IMG/VR virus record: IMGVR_UViG_3300039326_000334
Span: 1-23,202 of that record
DNA length: 23,202 nt
Reading direction: 5' to 3' (one strand)
Source of the DNA: a virus
The notes below the pieces were generated by a model. That model did not search any database. It was given only the letters and a program-made list of their open reading frames with translations, and was not told where the DNA came from. Position numbers and translations under genes: made by a program. Shown here one piece after another: positions 1-23,202 of this stretch; position 1 is the stretch's first letter, and the number at the start of each line of letters is the position of its first letter.

Positions 1-3000
1 CGGCGGCAGCATTCCGCGCCGGTATCCGGGGTGCGTGTAGGCGCAGAAGGATTCCGCGAAGCATTCCTTGCTGCTCGTCGCGGCGTACTTGGAGATGTGC
101 TTCGCAATCGCGTTCTTGGGGGCAGAGGGGTTCAAGTCCACGTCGTTGAACTTCTGCATCCACAGCGTCAGTTCTTTATTGCTCAGCAGGTGGTCCTGGA
201 CGTAGTGCCCGAACTCGTGCCGGACCGTCCCCTCGAACGTGTCGTCCACGACCCACCTGCCGACGCGCGGGCTGTCGTATTGCCGATGGTCGAGGTACGC
301 CGCCGCGACGGTGATGTGGTTGTTCCACGGGTCGTATAGGCCCACGGCATCGGAATGTTGCCTGCCGTCCTTGCCCCTGTAGACGAGCGTTCCGGCATCG
401 GACACCTCCAACTTCCGCAGCGGGGATCGCTCGCACCGCAGCTTGAAGTCGTTCCCGAATTGGGAGCGAGTCGCGGTCAAGGCCCCGTCCACCCGGTCGG
501 CCATCTCGAAATAGGTCTTGTTGACGAAGTCCGCAGGCCTCTCATCCGGGTCGACCTCGTGGTCGAGGTGCATGAAGCGAAGGCTGCTGCCCTGGTGTTC
601 CTTGAACTGCTGCTTCAGGCCCTTCGCGGTCTTCGCTCCCGGAGGATTTGCAGGAGGCGCTCCGGGCTTCTCGGCGGGCGGCTTGTCCTGGCCCGGCCCC
701 TTGGCGAACCACTCCGGGTGATCCTTCCGAGCCTTGTCGATCTGGGCCTTCAAGTCCGCGACGTGCTCTTCGTGAGATTTGCGCTCGTCATCGGAAATAC
801 CAGGCTTGCGCGCGGCCGTGTATGCGCGCTGCCGTTCCCGGTAGAGCTTCTTCAGTTCTTCCGGGGCGTCCTTGGGCGGCAGCGGAAGCGCTTCGACGTG
901 GCCGGCAGCGGCACCCACGTCGGAAAGTGTGTTCAGTTCGACGCTCTTCGGCAGTCGCCCCGTTTTCTGAAACGCCGCAAACCCTTTCGGCGTCAGCAGC
1001 GCGATTGCGTCGTACCCCGCCCGCCGCGCTTCGGTTGCCAGCTCGTGGTCGAGGTCCGTTCTCGCCTTGTAGAATTCCTTGTCGCCCGGATCTGGCAAGT
1101 CTGCCGATGCATGGCGGCCCAAGAGCGTCTTTTCAATGTGCAGTTCGTCGCCGACGAGCGGGCGATTCACTTCAACGCGTTCGGGTTTGGCGTCGCCGCG
1201 AATGCCGTAGAACTCGGCTTCTTCAAAGCTGGACGAGTAGAACTTGCCCCGTTTCGCATAGGCCGATTTATCTTCAGGCGGAACGTGCCACCACTCGCGC
1301 TTTCCAATCGCCGCCGCAGCCTTTGACTCCAGCGTGTCGTCGGCCGCGCGGGACGCTTCGCCGCCAGCCTTGTCATCACCGGCAGCGGATTCCTTCATGG
1401 CCTTCGCGCTGGCGCCGTGGGCCTCTTTCGATTTCTCCGTCGCGCCCTTGCCGCCTTCACCGAACTGCCCGCCTCCGGCTTGACCTGCGGGTACGCGCGG
1501 GTGTTTCGACTCGTCCCAGCCCGCCGCCAGCGCCACATTCGCCTGCTCGAGCTTCTCGATCCGGTCGAGCAACTCGCCCACGTTGGCGGCCAGCGACAGG
1601 CCCTTCTTCTGCCGGTCATCCTGCGCGCCCGGCCTCGGCTCGCTCGGACTGACCGCCGGGTCCGGCTGCGCGTCAGGGAAGTTCACCGGCGGGTCTTGTT
1701 CCGCGCCCATGCGGTATTCGTCGGAGAGCTGCGTGACGACCTCGCGCACGTCGAGGTTCTCCTCGTTGAGGATGTCGCGGCGCGTGGTCAGCTTGTAGTC
1801 GAGCGCGATCTTGTCGGCGGCGCGGTCGTTGGCGGGGTTGATGCTGCCCTTCTTCGGCCCGCGCCATTCCGCTTCCAGGTACGCCGCGCGCCATTCCGGG
1901 TTGTCGAAGCCGGGCGCTTCGAGGCGGCCTTCGAGGATCGCCAGCGTGATCACCTTGTCCCGGATCGGACGGCAGAAGTCGTCCACGAGGCGCAGCTGCG
2001 CGGGGTCGGTTTCGGCCCACGTCTCGAGGCGGCCCTGGAGCTGTCCGCTGTACGTCATGCCGGTGAAGTCGCGGGCGACGGTCGGGTAATCCAGGCCCGC
2101 GCCGGCGGCGATCTTCGTGATCTGCGTCCGGGTGAAGGGCTGGTACTGGCTGCCCGGCGTGGTCGGCTCGTGGAACTTCATCGTGCGGCCTGGGGCGAGC
2201 GGGACGATCATGCCCGGCTGGAGGCTGATGTCCTTCTCCCGCATGTAGGGACCGCCGGGACTGTTCGCACCCGCGCCGCCGAAGAGGTCCTGCCCCGGAC
2301 CCGGCGGCAGCGCGTCATGGTCGGACTCGATGCTCGCGCCGGCGATGCACTCGATCTTCGCGCGGAGGACCGAATACAGCTCGTAGAGCTTGTTATGGTG
2401 TAACGGCTGAAGAACGGGCGAGAGACGACCCATGCCCTGCGACTGCCGCACGCGCTCCGGCCTCATGGAACAGAGGACGCGGTCCCAGGGGACGCGCGTG
2501 TACGCCATGCGGCCCTGGATGTATTCGAGCGGATGCCCCTTCGTGAAGACCCAGAGCGCTGCCGGCGCGCCGAAGTCGTCGATCTCGACGCCGTTGCGAA
2601 TCCAGAAGCCGGTGTCGGGGTTCTTGACGAGCCAGGCGACGAGCTGCTCAAACTCGACGATCTGGATATGGGTGCCGATGTCATTGACGCGCGGGGTGTA
2701 GTTGAAGATGGCGAACGAGACGCCGGTGGTGACCTCTTCGCGGACGGTCAGGCTTTCGAGGCCGGTGAAGTTCCAGTGGCGCTCGGTGTGGCAGAGGTTC
2801 TTGTCGCGCGCCCACTGATACCAGACGCGGTCGGCGGCGTGGTTGAATTCAAGAAGCTGAACGCCGGTGCGCGGATGCCGGGCGTTCGCCCTGGGCGTGA
2901 TCCCGATCCCGACGGTGTGCCGGACGTGGGCGTCCACGATGCTGCCGGCGGTCCCGTCGTTTCGGATGGCATCGCGCGAGCGGGCGATGGCCGTCGGCTG

Positions 3001-3216
3001 GTCGGCGATGACGGCCTGGTCGCTCGACAGAAGGCGGGTGTTCCAGTCGGCGGTGACGCGCGAGTACTCGGCCGAGTCGTGGGCGGCCATCGCGAGCATC
3101 TCGGCGATGGCCTCGGCCTTCTGCTCTGAGAAGCTCAGACGGAGGCGGTTGGCGGCGCGGGCGGCGGCCCAGCCCGGGGCGACGGAGGCGATCAGGTTTT
3201 CCAGTCGCCTGCTCAT
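1..3216 (-). CDS. Phage portal protein (lambda gpB family) fused to C-terminal ART-like and zinc-metallopeptidase domains; 3' end outside window
   Basis: The reading frame is open without a stop from ATG at 3216 to the left edge (1,072 codons) and is incomplete at its C-terminus. Residues ~1-545 resemble lambda-type portal proteins, the dodecameric ring through which DNA enters the head (early AIARSRDAIRNDGTAGSIVD and TVGIGITPR segments). A coiled, charged stretch and the motif WDESKHPRVPAGQAGGGQF (~567-585) resemble linkers preceding appended domains in phage structural proteins. Residues ~640-762 (WWHVPPEDK, KFYSSSFEEAEFYG, GYDAIALL) resemble the ADP-ribosyltransferase-like domains of phage polyvalent proteins. 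HEFGH at 1000-1004, then ECFAE at 1051-1055, fits a zincin peptidase. The start overlaps the gpW stop (ATGA). Portal identity is solid, the metallopeptidase call is good, the ART call is inference. Normal portals are ~500-550 residues. Confidence 0.85.
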   Translation of the reverse strand, partial: MSRRLENLIASVAPGWAAARAANRLRLSFSEQKAEAIAEMLAMAAHDSAEYSRVTADWNTRLLSSDQAVIADQPTAIARSRDAIRNDGTAGSIVDAHVRHTVGIGITPRANARHPRTGVQLLEFNHAADRVWYQWARDKNLCHTERHWNFTGLESLTVREEVTTGVSFAIFNYTPRVNDIGTHIQIVEFEQLVAWLVKNPDTGFWIRNGVEIDDFGAPAALWVFTKGHPLEYIQGRMAYTRVPWDRVLCSMRPERVRQSQGMGRLSPVLQPLHHNKLYELYSVLRAKIECIAGASIESDHDALPPGPGQDLFGGAGANSPGGPYMREKDISLQPGMIVPLAPGRTMKFHEPTTPGSQYQPFTRTQITKIAAGAGLDYPTVARDFTGMTYSGQLQGRLETWAETDPAQLRLVDDFCRPIRDKVITLAILEGRLEAPGFDNPEWRAAYLEAEWRGPKKGSINPANDRAADKIALDYKLTTRRDILNEENLDVREVVTQLSDEYRMGAEQDPPVNFPDAQPDPAVSPSEPRPGAQDDRQKKGLSLAANVGELLDRIEKLEQANVALAAGWDESKHPRVPAGQAGGGQFGEGGKGATEKSKEAHGASAKAMKESAAGDDKAGGEASRAADDTLESKAAAAIGKREWWHVPPEDKSAYAKRGKFYSSSFEEAEFYGIRGDAKPERVEVNRPLVGDELHIEKTLLGRHASADLPDPGDKEFYKARTDLDHELATEARRAGYDAIALLTPKGFAAFQKTGRLPKSVELNTLSDVGAAAGHVEALPLPPKDAPEELKKLYRERQRAYTAARKPGISDDERKSHEEHVADLKAQIDKARKDHPEWFAKGPGQDKPPAEKPGAPPANPPGAKTAKGLKQQFKEHQGSSLRFMHLDHEVDPDERPADFVNKTYFEMADRVDGALTATRSQFGNDFKLRCERSPLRKLEVSDAGTLVYRGKDGRQHSDAVGLYDPWNNHITVAAAYLDHRQYDSPRVGRWVVDDTFEGTVRHEFGHYVQDHLLSNKELTLWMQKFNDVDLNPSAPKNAIAKHISKYAATSSKECFAESFCAYTHPGYRRGMLPP

Positions 3217-3488
3217 ATCCCTGGCCCCATGTAGTTGTGTTCCGGGTCGAACGCCGTGACGCCAGCGCCGGGGACTTCCTTGAAGCGGACGCCGACGGGC
3301 TGATACGCGCCCTGGGCTGCGGCGATCTGCTGCATCAGGTCTTTCTCGCGCCGCTGGAGCGCTGGCAGATCGAGAACCGTTGCCTGGCGCCCCGACCGAC
3401 CCACGGACGAGACGCCATTGGCGACGATGTTGCGGATGGTCGCCTTGACGCCGGCGAGGTCGGACTGAAGCTCTGTGAGGTCCGCCAT
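3213..3488 (-). CDS. gpW-like head-to-tail joining protein
   Basis: A 91-residue protein starting MADLTELQSDLAGVKATIRN. In lambda-like phages gpW sits next to the portal gene and helps stabilise DNA and complete the head before tail joining. Short length, two predicted helices (residues ~1-20 and ~45-60), a variable glycine/serine-rich turn between them and the position directly before the portal gene support this. The start at 3488 is preferred over the upstream ATG at 3530 because AGAGGAA lies 5 bases before it. The stop overlaps the portal start (ATGA), so the two are probably translationally coupled. A strong leftward terminator lies only ~40 bp upstream. Family assignment is from pattern and context, not a search. 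Confidence 0.72.
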   Translation of the reverse strand: MADLTELQSDLAGVKATIRNIVANGVSSVGRSGRQATVLDLPALQRREKDLMQQIAAAQGAYQPVGVRFKEVPGAGVTAFDPEHNYMGPGI

Positions 3489-3528
3489 CTCGGTTCCTCT
3501 CGGCCTGCCGTCGAGCGAACCGGGAAAC

Positions 3529-3577
3529 AAAAAAACCGGCCCGATGAGAGGGGTGAGCCTCTCACCAGGCCGGTTTT
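3529..3577 (-). terminator. Strong leftward rho-independent terminator upstream of gpW
   Basis: AAAACCGGCC (3532-3541) pairs perfectly with GGCCGGTTTT (3568-3577), and inside it TGAGAGG (3545-3551) pairs with CCTCTCA (3558-3564). Read on the minus strand the stem is followed by seven T (3535-3529). It would stop transcripts coming from the zinc-ribbon, MTase and terminase genes before gpW and portal. In the rest of the gene-free stretch 3489-3788 I see no further gene and no clear promoter. Confidence 0.8.
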
Positions 3578-5256: not shown

Positions 5257-6651
5257 TCATCGCTTCACCTTTCGGGAGGCCCGGACGCACTTCCGGGCCT
5301 CCTTCGCTTTAACGCCGTTCGTTGATGGCGTAAGCTTCTTCCAATCGCAGCCCGCGCCGTGGACGAACTCAGCCCACCGCTGCCGGATCACGTCGCAGTA
5401 CTGCGTGTCCAACTCCATCAAGAACGCATGCCGGCTCGTCTGCTCGCAGGCGATCAGCGTTGAACCCGACCCGCCGAAGAGGTCAAGGACGTTCTCGCCG
5501 GGCTGAGACGAATACTGAATCGCTCGCGTGGCCAGTTCCACGGGCTTCTCGGTCAGATGGATCATGGACTGCGGGTTGACTTTCTTGATCGGCCACACGT
5601 CCAGGGCGTTGTTCGGCCCGTAGAATTTGTGGCCGGCGCCGAGGCGCCATCCGTAGAAACACCACTCGTGGTTGCCCATGAAGTCCTTGCGGGTGAGAAC
5701 GGGGTGCTCCTTCACCCAGATGATCGCCTGGCTGAAATACAGCTCGCAGACCTTCAGGACCGGCGGGTAGTTTCCGCAGTTGGCGTAGCCGCCCCAGATG
5801 TAGAATGCGCGCCCCGGCTGAAGGACGCGGGCGATGTTGCCGAACCACGCCTGGAGCATCTTCTCGAAGGCGTCGTCCGAGACGAAGTCGTTTTCGAGGG
5901 GGCGGTCTTTGGCGCGCATCTTCTTGCTGGTGCCGTGGGCCTTGCTCTTGCCGCGCGCCAGGTCGAATCCCTGGTGGTGAGTCAGCCCCTTGCCAGCGCC
6001 AGGGGCGTGCTGCTTGTTGCCATAGCCCGCAAACGACGACAAACCTGCGGCGATGGCATTGTTGCTCCTCGGCTCGACCTTCACGTTGTAAGGCGGGTCA
6101 GTGTTCACGAGATGAACAGGAGCGCCGGCCAAGAGCGCGTCCAGGTCCGCCACGGAGCCGGAGTCCCCGCACATCAGCCGGTGGTTGCCGAGCTGGTAGA
6201 TGTCGCCCCTGGCGCTCGTGGCCTTGTCCGGCGGCGACGGCACGTTGTCCGGGTCGGTCTGCCCTGGCTGAAGGTTCAGTTCATCGGCGCTGAATCCGAG
6301 CATCGTCATGTCCACGCCGGCCTCTTTGAGTTCCGCCAGTTCGATCGGCAGCAACTCCATGTTCCACTCGGCCAGCTCCGCGAGCTTGTTATCCGCGATG
6401 CGGTAAGCCTTGACCTGCGTGGGCGTCAGGTCCGTGGCGACGTGGACGGGGACCTTCTCGAGGCCAAGCTTCTGCGCGGCCTTCAGGCGCGTGTGGCCGG
6501 CGATCACGACGCCGGCGGCGTCCACGACGATGGGCTGTCGCCAGCCGAACTCCTTGATGCTGCGCGCCACGGCATCCACGGCCGCATCGTTGATGCGCGG
6601 GTTCCGCTCGTAGGGCTTGACCTCGGCCGTCTTTCGCATCTCGATCTTCAT
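5257..6651 (-). CDS. ParB-domain DNA methyltransferase (N6-adenine/N4-cytosine type)
   Basis: A 464-residue fusion common in phages. Residues ~1-120 are a ParB/sulfiredoxin-like domain (VKPYERNPRIND, then AGHTRLKAAQKLG at 51-63). The rest is an S-adenosylmethionine-dependent methyltransferase with catalytic DPPY (185-188), a long insert with the probable target-recognition region (~190-255), HLTEKPVEL (365-373) and the cofactor loop LFGGSGST (391-398). Motif IV before motif I gives the beta-class order. Both key motifs are intact, so it should be active. Start 6651 is chosen because AAGGGAGAGG precedes it and it lies 11 bp after the terminase stop; the ATG at 6690 would overlap terminase. Likely roles are protecting phage DNA from restriction or marking DNA. 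No cognate restriction gene is visible. Confidence 0.88.
   Translation of the reverse strand: MKIEMRKTAEVKPYERNPRINDAAVDAVARSIKEFGWRQPIVVDAAGVVIAGHTRLKAAQKLGLEKVPVHVATDLTPTQVKAYRIADNKLAELAEWNMELLPIELAELKEAGVDMTMLGFSADELNLQPGQTDPDNVPSPPDKATSARGDIYQLGNHRLMCGDSGSVADLDALLAGAPVHLVNTDPPYNVKVEPRSNNAIAAGLSSFAGYGNKQHAPGAGKGLTHHQGFDLARGKSKAHGTSKKMRAKDRPLENDFVSDDAFEKMLQAWFGNIARVLQPGRAFYIWGGYANCGNYPPVLKVCELYFSQAIIWVKEHPVLTRKDFMGNHEWCFYGWRLGAGHKFYGPNNALDVWPIKKVNPQSMIHLTEKPVELATRAIQYSSQPGENVLDLFGGSGSTLIACEQTSRHAFLMELDTQYCDVIRQRWAEFVHGAGCDWKKLTPSTNGVKAKEARKCVRASRKVKR
5275..5310 (+). terminator. Terminator-like hairpin at the convergent end of the cassette and the MTase gene
   Basis: GGAGGCCCGGA (5275-5285) pairs perfectly with TCCGGGCCTCC (5292-5302), loop CGCACT, followed by TTCGCTTT on the plus strand. 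It ends the 4091-5251 transcript. Because the genes converge with a 5-bp gap, the hairpin lies inside the 3' coding end of the MTase gene. Confidence 0.65.
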
Positions 6652-6662
6652 CAGCCTCTCCC

Positions 6663-8735
6663 TTAAAGTTTGAATGGCGTCGGCGTCCAACCATCAGGCT
6701 CGCGTCGCCCCGTCTCTGACTCTTCCTCCAACTTCCGCGCCGCCTCTCGATCCCGCGCCTGCTGCGCCTCCAATGCGGCGGCGTTCTTCAACTCCTCCCG
6801 TCTCGCGTCGATCACCGCCCGTGCCGGCAGTGTGTGGACCTGCATCATGTACGCGGCGGCGACCTGGTAGACCTCGCAGTCGAAGAAGTCGATCACCGCG
6901 CCTTCGGACACCGGGCGCCAGACCTCCTCGAGGTGGTTGCCGACGCGCTCGACCACCTTCACGCAGTTCGATAGTTCCTGGTTGTATTCGGAATCGTTGC
7001 GCGTATTCAGGTGCCAGACCTCTTCGGCCTCGTTCTTCCGACCGCGCGAAACGAGGTCGGCCAGCTCGTCGGCGTAGTGGTGGACGTCCAGCATCCAGAG
7101 CGTCAGGTCGGTGCGCCGGTGTTGCTTCGCGTTGCCCTGATCCGTCCGCTGGACGGCCTTCGCCGGCCAAATGTGGATGGCGCCCTGGGCCCCGTGCGCG
7201 CGCCTGGCTCCCTTGATCGCACGGACGTTCCAGCGCACACGTTCGTGGACCCACTTGTAGACCTCCGTCGTGCGGGAGATTTCCTCGCTCTCGAGCTGCG
7301 TGCCGCCGGTGTCGATCAGGAGCAGGTGCAGGCGAATCGGCGGGTATGCGCCGTCCTCGTACTGCCAGAGGCGGCCGAGTAGCATCCTGTCCAGGTCATT
7401 GAAGGTTTCCAGGCGGCCGTGCCAGATGCGGGCGGACTCCATCCCGCCGCCGTCGGCCGTGGGTCCCCAGGCGCGCACGACGGCCTTGAAGAACCGGTGC
7501 TGCGTGTCCACCGTCGCCGAGAGCGCCACGGCCCATTTCGGGATGGTGCCTTCCGGCAGCTTCGCGCGAGACGCCTTGAGCGTGAAGGCATCGGCGTGAA
7601 GTTTCGTCGTCTGCTCGTCAAACGGTTCGCCGAGCGTGTCCGTCTTGAAGGCGAACATTTTCTCGCGCGATCCTTGGGCGAGAACGAACTGCGCCGCGAC
7701 CTCTGCCCAGGACAGCCACAGGCAGTAGAGGCCGGAGATGTGGACGCCAACGCTCGTGCCTGGGGCGAACGCCTCGACTGTCTCGATGGACTCGTGCGCG
7801 CGCCCGCCAGCGTCCAGGATGACGCTCTCGCCATAATCGGCCTGGTATCTGCCGGCGCAGCACATCGCCGGCTTGTCGGCCTCGAGGATCCTTCCCTTGC
7901 ACCCGGCGCACTCGTACCACGCAGCGGCGTTGCGCCGGATGTGGTCGGCCTGGTCATGGCGGTCTGGCTTGTCGCCCTTGTCGAACTTGAGATTCGAGAA
8001 CAGCAGGCGCTGCCGGAATCCGCAACGCGGGCACGGGACGTAGAAGTAAACCTTGATCGAGCAGTCGTCAAAGAGCTGCCAGATGCGGCCGTACCGGGTG
8101 CTCGGCGTGCTGGCGGCAATGAGGAGGCCGCGCTCGCCATAGGTCCGCAGGCGCGCCTGCACCAGTGAGACCGGCTCGCCCTGGCCGTGCGTCCACGGCG
8201 AGAACTTGTCGACCTCGTCACAGATTCCAATTCGCATCGGGTCGGATGCCATGCTCGAGGCAGAACCGGACCACATGAGGTGGAGGATAAATCCATTTTG
8301 CAGCTTGACCTGCTGCTTCGTCGCGTCAGCGCTCCGTGGCGTCATCAGCTTCTTCAGCGGCGGCGTTCCTCGGAAGAGCGGCAGGATGCGGTTGTCAACG
8401 ATGGCCCGGCCCTTCTTCTCGTCCGGCATGGCGATGCCGGCAGGATCCGGGACCAAATGAGCGGCCCACCCGACGACATTCCGCAACGCCTCTGACGCGC
8501 CGATCTGCGCGGCCTTGATGACGACCAGTTGCGCCAGTCCTGGAATCGCGCACAGGTCCATGATCGTGGTCGAGTAGGGTGACAGGGCGTTCTTGTACCG
8601 GTCGGAGAGGTTACTCTGGCCGCGCGGCAACCGGCGGTACTTCTCAGCCCACTGCGACGGCGTAAGGTTCTCGGTCGGCTGAAGCGCCGCCCGCTGGTCC
8701 GCCGGCGTTATGATCTGATTGCCTTTCGGGTTCAC
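6663..8735 (-). CDS. Terminase large subunit, GpA family (packaging ATPase-nuclease)
   Basis: A 690-residue motor that cuts concatemeric DNA and pumps it through the portal. Residues ~40-230 hold the ATPase with a deviant Walker A (KAAQIGAS, 74-81, with Ala where many have Lys, as tolerated in the lambda gpA family) and Walker B RIGICDE (168-174). A zinc-binding segment has CPRC (235-238) and CAGC (276-279). The nuclease part contains ATVDTQ (407-412) and LLIDTGG (472-478), typical acidic-site strands. GTG at 8735 is chosen as start: it overlaps the small-subunit stop as GTGA and follows GGGGAG; the ATG at 8777 would overlap the small subunit more deeply. It is part of the leftward packaging operon with the small subunit upstream and the ParB-MTase downstream. 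Confidence 0.93.
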   Translation of the reverse strand: MNPKGNQIITPADQRAALQPTENLTPSQWAEKYRRLPRGQSNLSDRYKNALSPYSTTIMDLCAIPGLAQLVVIKAAQIGASEALRNVVGWAAHLVPDPAGIAMPDEKKGRAIVDNRILPLFRGTPPLKKLMTPRSADATKQQVKLQNGFILHLMWSGSASSMASDPMRIGICDEVDKFSPWTHGQGEPVSLVQARLRTYGERGLLIAASTPSTRYGRIWQLFDDCSIKVYFYVPCPRCGFRQRLLFSNLKFDKGDKPDRHDQADHIRRNAAAWYECAGCKGRILEADKPAMCCAGRYQADYGESVILDAGGRAHESIETVEAFAPGTSVGVHISGLYCLWLSWAEVAAQFVLAQGSREKMFAFKTDTLGEPFDEQTTKLHADAFTLKASRAKLPEGTIPKWAVALSATVDTQHRFFKAVVRAWGPTADGGGMESARIWHGRLETFNDLDRMLLGRLWQYEDGAYPPIRLHLLLIDTGGTQLESEEISRTTEVYKWVHERVRWNVRAIKGARRAHGAQGAIHIWPAKAVQRTDQGNAKQHRRTDLTLWMLDVHHYADELADLVSRGRKNEAEEVWHLNTRNDSEYNQELSNCVKVVERVGNHLEEVWRPVSEGAVIDFFDCEVYQVAAAYMMQVHTLPARAVIDARREELKNAAALEAQQARDREAARKLEEESETGRREPDGWTPTPFKL

Positions 8736-9268
8736 GGCTTCTTCTCCCCGGTCGGAAGCTCGCCGTCGCCATCCCACCCTTCCGCGTAGGCCCGCAGGAC
8801 ATCGTTGACTCGGTCATCCACCGCCTTCTGCACCACTGGCGCCGGCTGCCCGACGACCTCGCGCACCAGCACCCGCGCCAACGTCACCAGTCCGCTCTTG
8901 AACGAATGCAGCCGCCGCATCCACTCTTCGCGCACCTCTTCCCGATCCACCAGCTGTTTCGCGTCCGCCAACCGGTTCTGACGGAGCGTCAGTTTGCGCT
9001 CGCGCAGGACCGCCAACTTCTCCTTCTCCACCTCGTCGGTCTCCGCGCTCGGCCTGTAAGGGATTTCCGCGCGCTCGTTCACGAACCACGCCAGAACCTT
9101 CAGAACGTTGTAGGTCTTATCCGGGTTGCGCGGGCAGCCCTTCTGCACCCACGCGCCGATGGCTGCGGGCGTCAGGTGCTTGACGCCTGCTTTCAGCAGC
9201 GTCGAACACAGGTCCACGCCGGACATCGCCAGCGGGTTCAGCGTCTCGGATGCGCCGGCCTTCGCCAT
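8732..9268 (-). CDS. Terminase small subunit-like DNA-recognition protein (Nu1-like)
   Basis: A 178-residue protein directly upstream of and overlapping the large terminase gene (GTGA). Residues ~15-50 look like a winged-helix/HTH unit (SGVDLCSTLLKAGVKHLTPA then IGAWVQKGCPRNP), followed by a long charged helix (~78-120, ETDEVEKEKLAVLRERKLTL onward) for oligomerisation, as in lambda Nu1-type small terminases. It would bind the packaging site and load the large subunit. The family is highly divergent, so the call rests on architecture and position. The start ATG 9268 has only a weak purine-rich site upstream (GGACGACATGAC), so a slightly different start is possible. Confidence 0.8.
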   Translation of the reverse strand: MAKAGASETLNPLAMSGVDLCSTLLKAGVKHLTPAAIGAWVQKGCPRNPDKTYNVLKVLAWFVNERAEIPYRPSAETDEVEKEKLAVLRERKLTLRQNRLADAKQLVDREEVREEWMRRLHSFKSGLVTLARVLVREVVGQPAPVVQKAVDDRVNDVLRAYAEGWDGDGELPTGEKKP

Positions 9269-9378: not shown

Positions 9379-10008
9379 CTATATGGACTTGGATGCCCGC
9401 CACCGGCGCTGATAGGCCAACATCTTCTCCCTGTCAGCCGGCACCATGCGCGGTGTCTGCACCGGGTTCGCTTTGATACTGGCGTTCGTCCGCGCGAACT
9501 CCCCGTGTTCCTGGAGCGCTGCGGAATCATAGGCCGCTGCGGCCTCTTCGCGCGTGGCGAAGTAACCGAGCCAATGCTTTACCCCGTTCGACTTCGTATA
9601 GGCACGCCACGGCTTTGAGTAATGCTTTCCGCCTCCCTTCTCAAAGGTCACGCCTTTGAAACCGGAGAGTCCGCAGATGCGGTGCTTATTGCGCTTGTTC
9701 TGACTGCGCGTGCACACCCGGATGTTGTGTCGCCTGTTGTCAAGACCGTTGCCGTTGACGTGGTCGACGTCGTTCGTTCGATTGTCGCCGCGAGGGAGTT
9801 CAAGAATAAAACGGTGCATTGATATCTGCTTGCCCCCTATCTCGCAGTAGGCGTAGCACGTTGAGTAGCCGGGGACCACATGCCATGAATGATTCAAAAC
9901 CCGTTCCACGTCCGTGAAGTCCACGAGTGCGTAGGCTGCGTCACCCACGGCGTGGCGACCGTGCAACGGCACGGCGGCGCACTTGGGAACTTCGCACACG
10001 CACGGCAT
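9379..10008 (-). CDS. HNH endonuclease with C-terminal AP2 DNA-binding domain
   Basis: From ATG 10008 this is a 209-residue protein. Residues ~62-107 carry the HNH nuclease core (MHRFILELPRGDN, then DVDHVNGNGLDNRRHNIRV). Residues ~115-175 carry an AP2-like domain (GFKGVTFEKGGGKHYSKPWR, then GYFATREEAAAAYDSAALQ). The fold resembles homing-type HNH-AP2 proteins that move as free-standing mobile genes; HNH proteins next to terminase genes can instead assist packaging. The frame stays open to 10347, but that upstream part is low-complexity and spans the GTTTCA repeat array, so I use 10008. A TTG at 10264, ten bases after GGAGG, would be an alternative start. Its ribosome site at 10008 is weak. 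Confidence 0.82.
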   Translation of the reverse strand: MPCVCEVPKCAAVPLHGRHAVGDAAYALVDFTDVERVLNHSWHVVPGYSTCYAYCEIGGKQISMHRFILELPRGDNRTNDVDHVNGNGLDNRRHNIRVCTRSQNKRNKHRICGLSGFKGVTFEKGGGKHYSKPWRAYTKSNGVKHWLGYFATREEAAAAYDSAALQEHGEFARTNASIKANPVQTPRMVPADREKMLAYQRRWRASKSI

Positions 10009-10030
10009 GCCGGGGTGCGCGCAGGCTGAA

Positions 10031-10273
10031 CCTGAAACAGCCCTCGCGCACGCACATTCCGGTCCGGTGCGCGACGCCTTCAGGCTCGCGCACCCTACGG
10101 GGGTGTGGGGGGTGTGCGCGCAAACGTGTTTCTTTGTTTCAAATGCTCCATAACGCGCTGCGCTACAGCATGTTGCGCTTGAAACAAAACCTGAAACAGC
10201 CTGTTTCAGTTTCAGGCCCGTTTCCGGGGTTTGTTTCAGGCCCAGTTTCAGGATTTGTTTCAAGTCAGTTTCA
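10031..10273 (+). repeat. GTTTCA repeat array with 19-bp palindrome in the central control region
   Basis: GTTTCA occurs at 10136, 10203, 10209, 10233, 10245, 10257 and 10268, with the variant GTTTCC at 10220. Inverted copies (TGAAAC) occur at 10033, 10180 and 10192. From 10209 to 10268 the steps are 11, 13, 12, 12 and 11 bp, close to one DNA turn, so copies lie on about the same face. CTGAAACAGCCTGTTTCAG (10191-10209) is a perfect palindrome with one central base. Most of the gene-free stretch 10009-10412 is this array plus the lexA promoter. It fits an operator array for cooperative binding; the binding protein is unknown. It is not a CRISPR (units too short, no spacers). Confidence 0.7.
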
Positions 10274-10287
10274 CCTCCCCTTGAACG

Positions 10288-10314
10288 TTGACAGGGTCCT
10301 CCTACAGGCATAAA
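10288..10314 (+). promoter_or_regulatory. Possible second rightward promoter upstream of lexA
   Basis: A perfect -35 box TTGACA (10288-10293) is followed, after a short 15-bp spacer, by CATAAA (10309-10314). It lies between the GTTTCA array and the main lexA promoter. The spacer and -10 are poor, so this is weak. Confidence 0.25.
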
Positions 10315-10355
10315 GGGGGACAAGATCGCCTGTGCGGGACACGACACGAAGCGAT

Positions 10356-10384
10356 TTGACTCCTAACGGACGTTAGGGGATAAT
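10356..10384 (+). promoter_or_regulatory. Sigma-70 promoter of the lexA operon with palindromic operator in the spacer
   Basis: TTGACT (10356-10361), a 17-bp spacer, then GATAAT (10379-10384): near-consensus boxes at ideal distance, start of transcription expected near 10391. The spacer is filled by the perfect inverted repeat CCTAACG-GA-CGTTAGG (10362-10377). A repressor bound there would block RNA polymerase directly. Autoregulation by the LexA-like product is the obvious reading. GGAGAG (10403-10408) is the ribosome site for ATG 10413. Confidence 0.85.
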
Positions 10385-10412
10385 GTGTGCTTCTTTCAGC
10401 TTGGAGAGCAGC

Positions 10413-11030
10413 ATGGCAGAGGCGCAGCGCCTGACCGACCGTCAGCGCGAGATCTTCGACTGGATCAAGGCGTTCATCGCTCGCAACGGCCTGCCGCCGA
10501 CCGTGCGCGAGATCGGCGGTGCGTTCGGCATTAAGAGCTCCAGCGCTTTCGAATTGCTTCAGGCACTGGAGAGGAAAGGCGTTCTGCGGCGCGGGAATCT
10601 GGGCGCACGGTCTCTCGTCGTTCGCGGAGGCCGCGGGCTGCGCAGGCGGGACTCGGTCGAGGTGCGGATATTGGGCCGCATCGTCGCCGGCGCGCCGAAT
10701 CTGGCCGTTGAAGACCCGTCTGAGACGCTCGTTGTCGACGAGCGGCTTGGACGAGGCCGAGACTTATATGCCTTGCGCGTGGACGGTGACAGCATGAAGG
10801 ACGCCGACATTCTCGACGGCGATGTTGTCATCATTCGTCGGCAGGACACGGCGGACGATGGCGATATCGTCGTGGCACTGATTGATGACGAGTCCACGCT
10901 CAAGCGCCTTCGTATTGAGCAGGGTCGTGTCCGGCTCGACCCTGCCAACGACAGGATGAAGCCGATCTATGTAGACGGACAAGAATTCCGTGTTCAGGGC
11001 AAAGTAGTAGCAGTCCACCGGGCGCTATGA
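10413..11030 (+). CDS. lexA: LexA-type self-cleaving repressor
   Basis: A 205-residue protein with the complete LexA layout. Residues ~4-60 are the winged helix (LTDRQREIFDWI, LPPTVREIGGAFG, KSSSAFELLQALERKGVL). The C-terminal S24 peptidase part has the Ala-Gly cleavage site (VAG, A92-G93), nucleophile S127 in VDGDSMKDADI and general-base K164 in STLKRL. RecA filaments would trigger self-cleavage after DNA damage and lift repression. The recognition helix (SSSAFELL) differs from the E. coli SPNAAEEH pattern, consistent with an unusual operator. The start at 10413 is fixed by GGAGAG. First gene of a three-gene operon; it may serve as the prophage repressor, since no other CI-like repressor is seen here. 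Standard chromosomal LexA carried by the element is the alternative. Confidence 0.92.
   Translation: MAEAQRLTDRQREIFDWIKAFIARNGLPPTVREIGGAFGIKSSSAFELLQALERKGVLRRGNLGARSLVVRGGRGLRRRDSVEVRILGRIVAGAPNLAVEDPSETLVVDERLGRGRDLYALRVDGDSMKDADILDGDVVIIRRQDTADDGDIVVALIDDESTLKRLRIEQGRVRLDPANDRMKPIYVDGQEFRVQGKVVAVHRAL

Positions 11031-21381: not shown

Positions 21382-21385
<4 letters not shown>
21152..21385 (+). CDS. Small hypothetical protein coupled to the recombinase
   Basis: A 77-residue protein with a helical centre (ELEAEASPDQMSVAESILAR then LLVRRWQAARNSAEHALDL) and polar tails. I do not recognise it. GGAG lies upstream of ATG 21152. Its stop overlaps the recombinase start as ATGA, so the two are translationally coupled. 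Small proteins beside large serine integrases sometimes act as directionality factors, but nothing in this sequence shows that; it could also be a linker gene of the replication operon. Confidence 0.55.

Positions 21386-23202
<1,817 letters not shown>

What the first reader, a model, noticed from the sequence alone, without database searches (positions are those of the whole stretch)
1..930. Portal protein carrying a C-terminal zinc metallopeptidase
The portal frame continues to the left edge without a stop, and at residues 1000-1004 has HEFGH followed by ECFAESF (1051-1057), a good fit to a gluzincin-type site (third ligand E1051 or E1055). An enzyme attached to the portal ring could be carried in the virion near the DNA exit and act on host or phage proteins when injected, as proposed for phage polyvalent proteins. 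A protease on the portal itself, instead of a separate head protease, is unusual. The gene is incomplete here, so further domains may follow.
Basis: partly seen in the sequence, partly recalled or inferred. Interest (0 to 1): 0.85.

Follow-up and report, generated by a model that had tools for sequence, protein, structure and literature searches.

The report
Phage portal carrying two effector enzymes
A phage's portal protein, the ring through which its DNA leaves the head, carries a C-terminal tail with a predicted ADP-ribosyltransferase and a zinc protease that other phages hang on a different head protein, so it probably arms each virus particle with enzymes aimed at the host.

Summary
One unbroken minus-strand frame (3216..1, 1072 aa, cut by the contig edge) encodes a lambda-family portal followed by HEFGH (1000-1004) and ECFAESF (1051-1057). 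A sister contig (L002/L033) completes the gene: only 31 residues are missing, so no further domain follows. In 14 relatives the invariant residues are HExGH, Y1044 and E1051-x-F-A-E1055-x-F. The predicted fold matches lethal-factor-type and PPEP zincins. Between portal and cargo lies a motif (WDESKHPRVPAG..GGQFGEGG) that recurs in more than 100 other viral proteins, often directly after portal, MuF or prohead-protease domains. Relatives of the zincin mostly sit on MuF head proteins, the known carriers of phage-delivered toxins; neither this contig nor its sister has a detectable MuF. The cargo of the two sister phages is far more alike at silent sites than their portals, so it was probably exchanged as a cassette. 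Best reading: a portal-borne effector cassette, carried in the head and acting on host or defence proteins early in infection. Delivery and activity are inferred. Portal-effector fusions are already published: a new variant of a known kind.

The parts
1..3216 (-). Portal-ART-like-zincin fusion gene, 1072 aa in the window, about 1103 aa complete
1615..3216 (-). Portal region (aa 1-534; lambda family)
   Evidence: PF05136 3e-71, phrog_21 5e-78, TIGR01539 4.6e-58; PDB portal chains 8vhx, 8gtd, 8k38
1444..1518 (-). Junction motif WDESKHPRVPAGQAGGGQFGEGGKG (aa 567-591) between portal and cargo
916..1299 (-). ART-like (ADP-ribosyltransferase-fold) domain, about aa 640-767; conserved E760
   Evidence: hhalign to ART-PolyVal members, PF18760 hits in those members, Foldseek to AcrIF11 6kyf prob 0.98, VIA list dominated by ARTs
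1..618 (-). Zincin metallopeptidase domain (aa 867-1072, last 31 aa lie beyond the contig edge)
205..219 (-). HEFGH zinc-binding/catalytic motif (aa 1000-1004)
   Evidence: invariant HExGH in 14 relatives
85..87 (-). Y1044, invariant; candidate catalytic tyrosine (counterpart of Y178 of PPEP-1)
   Evidence: PPEP inactive mutants named
46..66 (-). ECFAESF (aa 1051-1057): E1051 likely third zinc ligand, E1055 second shell
   Evidence: invariant ExFAExF
6663..8777 (-). Terminase large subunit (GpA type), places the fusion in the head module
   Evidence: PF05876 1.1e-46, PF20454 1.3e-42
3213..3530 (-). Small gene just before the portal, weak head-tail adaptor similarity
   Evidence: phrog_118 0.0035, phrog_5774 0.0022

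Best explanation
This is a lambda-family portal protein that carries, behind a conserved junction motif, an exchangeable cargo of two enzymes: an ADP-ribosyltransferase-like domain and a lethal-factor/PPEP-type zinc metallopeptidase. Up to 12 copies per head (portals are dodecamers; general knowledge) would be built into the capsid with the portal. They are then freed or exposed, possibly by cleavage near the junction, and act on host or defence proteins at the start of infection. The portal here takes the carrier role that MuF proteins play in other phages. Shown: the fusion, both domain assignments (zincin firmly, ART moderately), intact zincin catalytic residues, the shared junction motif, and cassette-like evolution. 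Inferred: position inside the capsid, release, injection, enzymatic activity and targets.
For: Same intact fusion in two phages with purifying selection. Zincin relatives are C-terminal parts of MuF head proteins: L015, L024, L026, L044, L045, L047 match MuF; L056 and L226 look MuF-like by eye. L044 has MuF + zincin + ADP-ribosyltransferase PF03496 at 1.1e-15, i.e. the same enzyme pair on the other carrier. No MuF in the window or sister record. Profile comparison of the window pair with 9 others: prob 99.8, E=2.7e-29. AF2 model pTM 0.68, active-site helices pLDDT about 86; VIA top rows lethal factor Z 9.6 and PPEPs Z about 8. Junction motif: 48 + 78 instances; motif ORFs include portal, MuF, S78 protease, and cargo such as ART, Acb1, 2H, InPase, Zeta toxin, RNase A-like; head-carrier enrichment about 1e-7 by a rough count. 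Four-fold sites differ 39% in the portal but 15% in the cargo, Fisher 2.7e-6. Literature: PMC5512222, PMC9503650, PMC5576092. The window also carries a large serine recombinase, fitting the published tie of MuF toxins to temperate phages.
Against: No experiment and no virion data. The ART fold match is weak in absolute terms (VIA Z at most 4.5; no Pfam hit for the window domain itself), and its first catalytic position appears to be His where relatives have Arg. Twelve tails of several hundred residues would be bulky inside a small head. How a portal-tethered enzyme would leave the virion is unexplained without cleavage. Only two phages with this exact fusion are known.
Confidence: 0.6

Rival explanations
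1. The zincin is a virion-assembly protease: it matures the head or cuts its own portal tail, and does not act on the host.
For: Relatives of this portal are normally followed by an S49-type or other head protease, whereas in the sister phage the next gene is a capsid fusion with no recognised protease domain. A release cut is needed for delivery anyway.
Against: The same zincin family sits on MuF proteins beside classical toxin or effector domains. The N-terminal 475 aa of the sister's capsid fusion are unassigned and might hold a protease. Head-maturation proteases known to the author are serine-type, and it travels with an ART-like domain that has no assembly role known to the author.
Confidence: 0.18
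2. The tail is a structural or DNA-contacting extension of the portal; the enzyme folds are retained but inactive.
For: Tethering to the portal would keep the domains in the head; the ART-like domain has a non-canonical first catalytic position (alignment).
Against: Only active-site residues are invariant in the zincin family; strong purifying selection in both domains, dN/dS 0.07 and 0.12; E760 invariant in the ART-like set.
Confidence: 0.12
3. Assembly chimera or frame error joining unrelated genes.
For: The window is one metagenomic contig that ends inside the gene.
Against: Independent contig with the same fusion and 86% identity, no stop or frameshift in either.
Confidence: 0.02

Closest known systems
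Portal-effector fusions of the polyvalent-protein literature (Iyer 2017 PMC5512222; PMC9503650)
   Same: Portal domain with C-terminal enzymes predicted to be packaged and injected: PBECR, 2H, InPase, Nudix, ART
   Different: The main text of PMC5512222 names no portal-zincin fusion; here two enzymes are joined in series, after a defined junction motif
MuF polymorphic toxins (Jamet 2017 PMC5576092)
   Same: Same cargo repertoire, about 20% metallopeptidase, also ADP-ribosyltransferase; the same zincin family is found on MuF here
   Different: Carrier is the portal, not MuF; no MuF found in these phages
Lethal-factor-type / PPEP zincins (PF07737, Peptidase_Mx PF15887)
   Same: HExxH, downstream Tyr and Glu, matching fold (VIA Z 8-9.6)
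   Different: Low identity (13-20% in the structural alignments), phage-borne on a portal, no export signal tested
ART-PolyVal (PF18760) and AcrIF11
   Same: Predicted fold and conserved segments FYSSS, EARRAGYDAI and Glu
   Different: No direct Pfam hit; Arg of motif 1 apparently replaced by His; no evidence of a CRISPR target
T4 / P1 capsid-targeting sequences (P1 DarB N-terminal 30 aa, PMC9024508)
   Same: Short segment that could steer cargo to the head
   Different: Different position; the motif here is internal in most carriers and its function is untested

Membership tests
Lambda-family portal (PF05136) | Profile match above curated cut-off over the domain | tested here: met
   240.9 bits, cut-off 32.9
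Gluzincin-type zinc metallopeptidase | HExxH plus downstream Glu ligand, invariant in relatives | tested here: met
Gluzincin-type zinc metallopeptidase | Zincin fold with the motifs on adjacent helices | tested here: met
   (model confidence moderate overall, high at the active-site helices)
Gluzincin-type zinc metallopeptidase | Zinc binding and proteolysis | not testable with these tools
   needs purified protein
Peptidase_Mx (PF15887) | Score above gathering cut-off 27 | tested here: inconclusive
   window 25.8 bits (truncated), sister 27.8 bits
ATLF / lethal-factor family (PF07737) | Score above gathering cut-off 27.4 | tested here: not met
   15.4 bits; fold similar only
ART-PolyVal (PF18760) | Profile match | tested here: not met
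   window domain has no hit; 2 of 5 aligned members hit, best 1.5e-4
ADP-ribosyltransferase fold | Structural match to ARTs | tested here: inconclusive
   AcrIF11 prob 0.98, E 1.5e-3; VIA Z at most 4.5 but rows mostly ARTs
MuF polymorphic toxin | MuF domain | tested here: not met
   no PF04233 in the window or sister record; both records are fragments
Phage-type polyvalent protein | Two or more effector domains in one polypeptide tied to virion genes | tested here: met
   portal + ART-like + zincin; terminase upstream, capsid gene downstream in the sister
Phage-type polyvalent protein | Packaged and injected | not testable with these tools
   needs virion proteomics and ejection assays

The most novel reading that the evidence does not exclude
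The junction motif ([WFY]x[ES]x[HQ]PR[DV]...G[RQE]F[GAT].GGG) is a general virion-cargo tag: a protein-level signal recognised during head assembly, for docking or for a release cut. It would let phages plug interchangeable counter-defence and toxin domains (ART, zincin, Acb1, 2H phosphoesterase, nucleases) onto portal, MuF, protease or stand-alone carriers. The window's portal would be one instance. Protein-level selection is supported because synonymous codons at the motif are as diverse as elsewhere.
Probability: 0.35. Interest if true: 0.8.

Novelty: new variant of a known kind. Interest (0 to 1): 0.5.

Why it matters
It shows the portal taking the place of MuF as carrier of a two-enzyme cargo, which would set a fixed dose (up to 12 copies, against one to two for MuF in SPP1, PMC5576092) at the DNA exit. 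If the shared junction motif is a cargo tag, it gives a sequence handle for finding head-borne counter-defence proteins across phages and a short peptide whose function can be tested directly.

Tried and rejected
Single-protein searches of viral contigs with the C-terminal half, the zincin pair or the portal found only the sister contig; both genome-contig scans found no relative. tblastn of the cargo found nothing useful in annotated phages; in plasmids the best match was 9e-4 to a hypothetical protein. A divergent portal alignment could not be used as a query. Short-peptide tblastn of the motif in phages returned nothing; at 23-33 aa with a low-complexity filter this says little. No paper in the held library contains six spellings of the motif, which is weak evidence of novelty. 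Foldseek alone gave no match below 1e-3 for either model. Rejected: assembly chimera (second contig); incomplete gene with more domains (sister ends 31 aa later); the motif as a DNA recombination site (codon test). Prophage host not identified.

Full report
WHAT IS THERE. The window is a whole virus record of 23,202 bases. The frame 3216..1 (-) is open for 1072 codons to the contig edge. Its N-terminus is a lambda-family portal (PF05136 3e-71, aa 53-404; PDB portals 8vhx, 8gtd and 8k38). Upstream lie a GpA-type terminase and a small possible adaptor gene.

THE GENE IS NEARLY COMPLETE. A sister contig, IMGVR_UViG_3300041809_003493 (L002/L033), encodes the same fusion, uninterrupted, and ends 31 residues after the point where the window stops. 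The full protein should be about 1103 aa with no further domain. Downstream in the sister come a capsid fusion protein, a decoration protein and neck and tail genes. Every segment of the fusion is under purifying selection: dN/dS 0.22 portal, 0.07 ART-like, 0.12 zincin, 0.37 in the linker between them.

THE ZINCIN. A degenerate scan for HEFGHYV and an alignment search brought distant relatives. In the 14-row alignment the invariant columns are H1000, E1001, G1003, H1004, Y1044, E1051, F1053, A1054, E1055 and F1057 (window numbering). The window/sister pair matches nine others by profile with E=2.7e-29. The AF2 model (pLDDT 65, pTM 0.68; active-site helices about 86) puts HEFGH and ECFAE on two helices. 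VIA ranks anthrax lethal factor (Z 9.6, 155 residues, rmsd 3.6) and the PPEP peptidases (Z about 8) highest; Foldseek alone is not significant. PPEP entries named are inactivated at the HExxH Glu plus a Tyr (E143A/Y178F; E153A/Y189F), and Y1044 is the natural counterpart. In lethal factor and PPEP-1, to my knowledge, that Tyr lies seven residues before the third ligand; E1051 is seven after Y1044. I therefore favour E1051 as ligand (inference).

THE SECOND DOMAIN. Its own Pfam search is empty. It aligns with three viral proteins, and two members of that alignment hit ART-PolyVal; a profile comparison with those three gives probability 91.9, E=7e-7. Those three were found by a motif taken from this domain, so some selection bias remains. 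The model (pLDDT 68, pTM 0.63) matches 6kyf, prob 0.98, E=1.5e-3, which is AcrIF11, a phage ADP-ribosyltransferase (PMC12421852). The VIA list is dominated by ART-fold proteins (diphtheria-toxin type, RES toxins, Tpt1, PARPs) but at Z 4.5 or less. I treat the ART assignment as likely, not certain. E760 is conserved in the set; the usual first Arg looks replaced by His.

WHO CARRIES THIS ZINCIN ELSEWHERE. Relatives are C-terminal parts of MuF head-morphogenesis proteins: L015, L024, L026, L044, L045 and L047 match PF04233 (L045 at 28.9 bits is just under the cut-off; in L047 the MuF domain comes after the zincin). L044 has MuF, zincin and an ADP-ribosyltransferase (PF03496, 1.1e-15); L045 has MuF, Zeta toxin, zincin and GNAT. 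L056 and L226 look MuF-like by sequence (not profile-tested), L226 with the PRVPAG motif then a zincin. PF04233 is absent from the window and sister records but present in the three MuF-zincin records searched beside them. Both records are fragments, so a MuF gene outside them is not excluded. The portal seems to stand in for MuF as carrier.

THE JUNCTION MOTIF. Between portal and cargo both phages have WDESKHPRVPAG..GG[QE]FG (one extra G in both). A scan for PRDxxGRFxEG gave 50 stretches, in which 48 distinct instances share flanks that the pattern did not fix: Q or H before the P in 47 of 48, D at -2 in 71%, G at +8 in 92%. A scan for the window-like form gave 88 stretches and 78 instances with the same H/Q-P-R context. 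Among 46 motif ORFs (45 plus the window), Pfam finds portal, MuF and S78 protease as carriers and ADP-ribosyltransferase (7), Acb1, 2H/LigT, InPase, RNase A-like CdiA-CT, Zeta toxin, topoisomerase IB and others as partners. Matching ORF lengths and coordinates, I count eleven portal ORFs above cut-off, other than the window's and sister's, with the motif C-terminal to the portal domain: L015, L157, L160, L162, L179, L181, L199, L215, L219, L232, L251. Carrier enrichment is 12 observed against 1.95 expected, P=9e-8; this assumes one gene per kb and ignores ORF length, so it is rough. Synonymous codons at the motif are as mixed as elsewhere (0.367 against 0.359; 0.354 against 0.351), so selection acts on the peptide, not on DNA.

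CARGO EXCHANGE. Between window and sister, four-fold sites differ by 39% in the portal and 15% in the two cargo domains (Fisher 2.7e-6); the drop begins just after the motif region. This fits recombination of the cargo as a cassette. Different constraint on silent sites is a less likely cause.

HOW IT PROBABLY WORKS. Shown: fusion, catalytic residues, carriers, motif, exchange. Inferred: the tail lies in the capsid with the portal, is freed or exposed, enters the cell with the DNA, and modifies or cuts host or defence proteins early. The published frame for this is polyvalent proteins and MuF toxins (PMC5512222, PMC9503650, PMC5576092). [quoted passage not shown] The architecture is therefore a new variant of a known kind. 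Whether the motif is a docking tag, a cleavage site or only a favoured linker is open; P1 DarB offers a precedent for short head-targeting sequences (PMC9024508).

LIMITS. Two phages carry this exact fusion. Function, delivery and the status of a separate head protease are untested. The motif survey used patterns tuned to two spellings in one viral collection.

Noticed in passing
window 1444-1518 (-); L015, L136-L183, L185-L271: Conserved junction motif [HQ]PR[DV]...G[RQE]F joining head proteins (portal, MuF, S78 protease) to varied effector domains; no paper found with its sequence.
   Followed up: partly
L015 9011-11368 (-): HK97-type portal followed by the motif and a domain that looks PDDEXK-nuclease-like by eye (HGIELKT); similar 'IEVKT' tails after the motif in L160, L162 and L164.
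   Followed up: no
L015 5754-9107 (-): One ORF holds the motif twice, with two further HExxH-containing regions (HEAGH, HEFAH) in a phage that also has a MuF-zincin protein.
   Followed up: no
L002 3090-5975 (+): Capsid protein fused to about 475 N-terminal residues with no library match; a stretch (VKCHVTH...LGLSAIF) looks by eye like a prohead serine protease.
   Followed up: partly
window 5257-6690 (-): DNA methylase with an N-terminal ParB-like domain between terminase and portal genes.
   Followed up: no
window 9379-10347 (-): HNH endonuclease with an AP2 domain.
   Followed up: no
window 21382-23202 (+): Large serine recombinase at the right edge, open-ended, suggesting a temperate phage; a LexA-like ORF lies at 10383-11030 by eye.
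   Followed up: partly
L219 961-6600 (+); L232 5800-8715 (-): Single ORFs containing portal, the motif and a MuF domain together.
   Followed up: no
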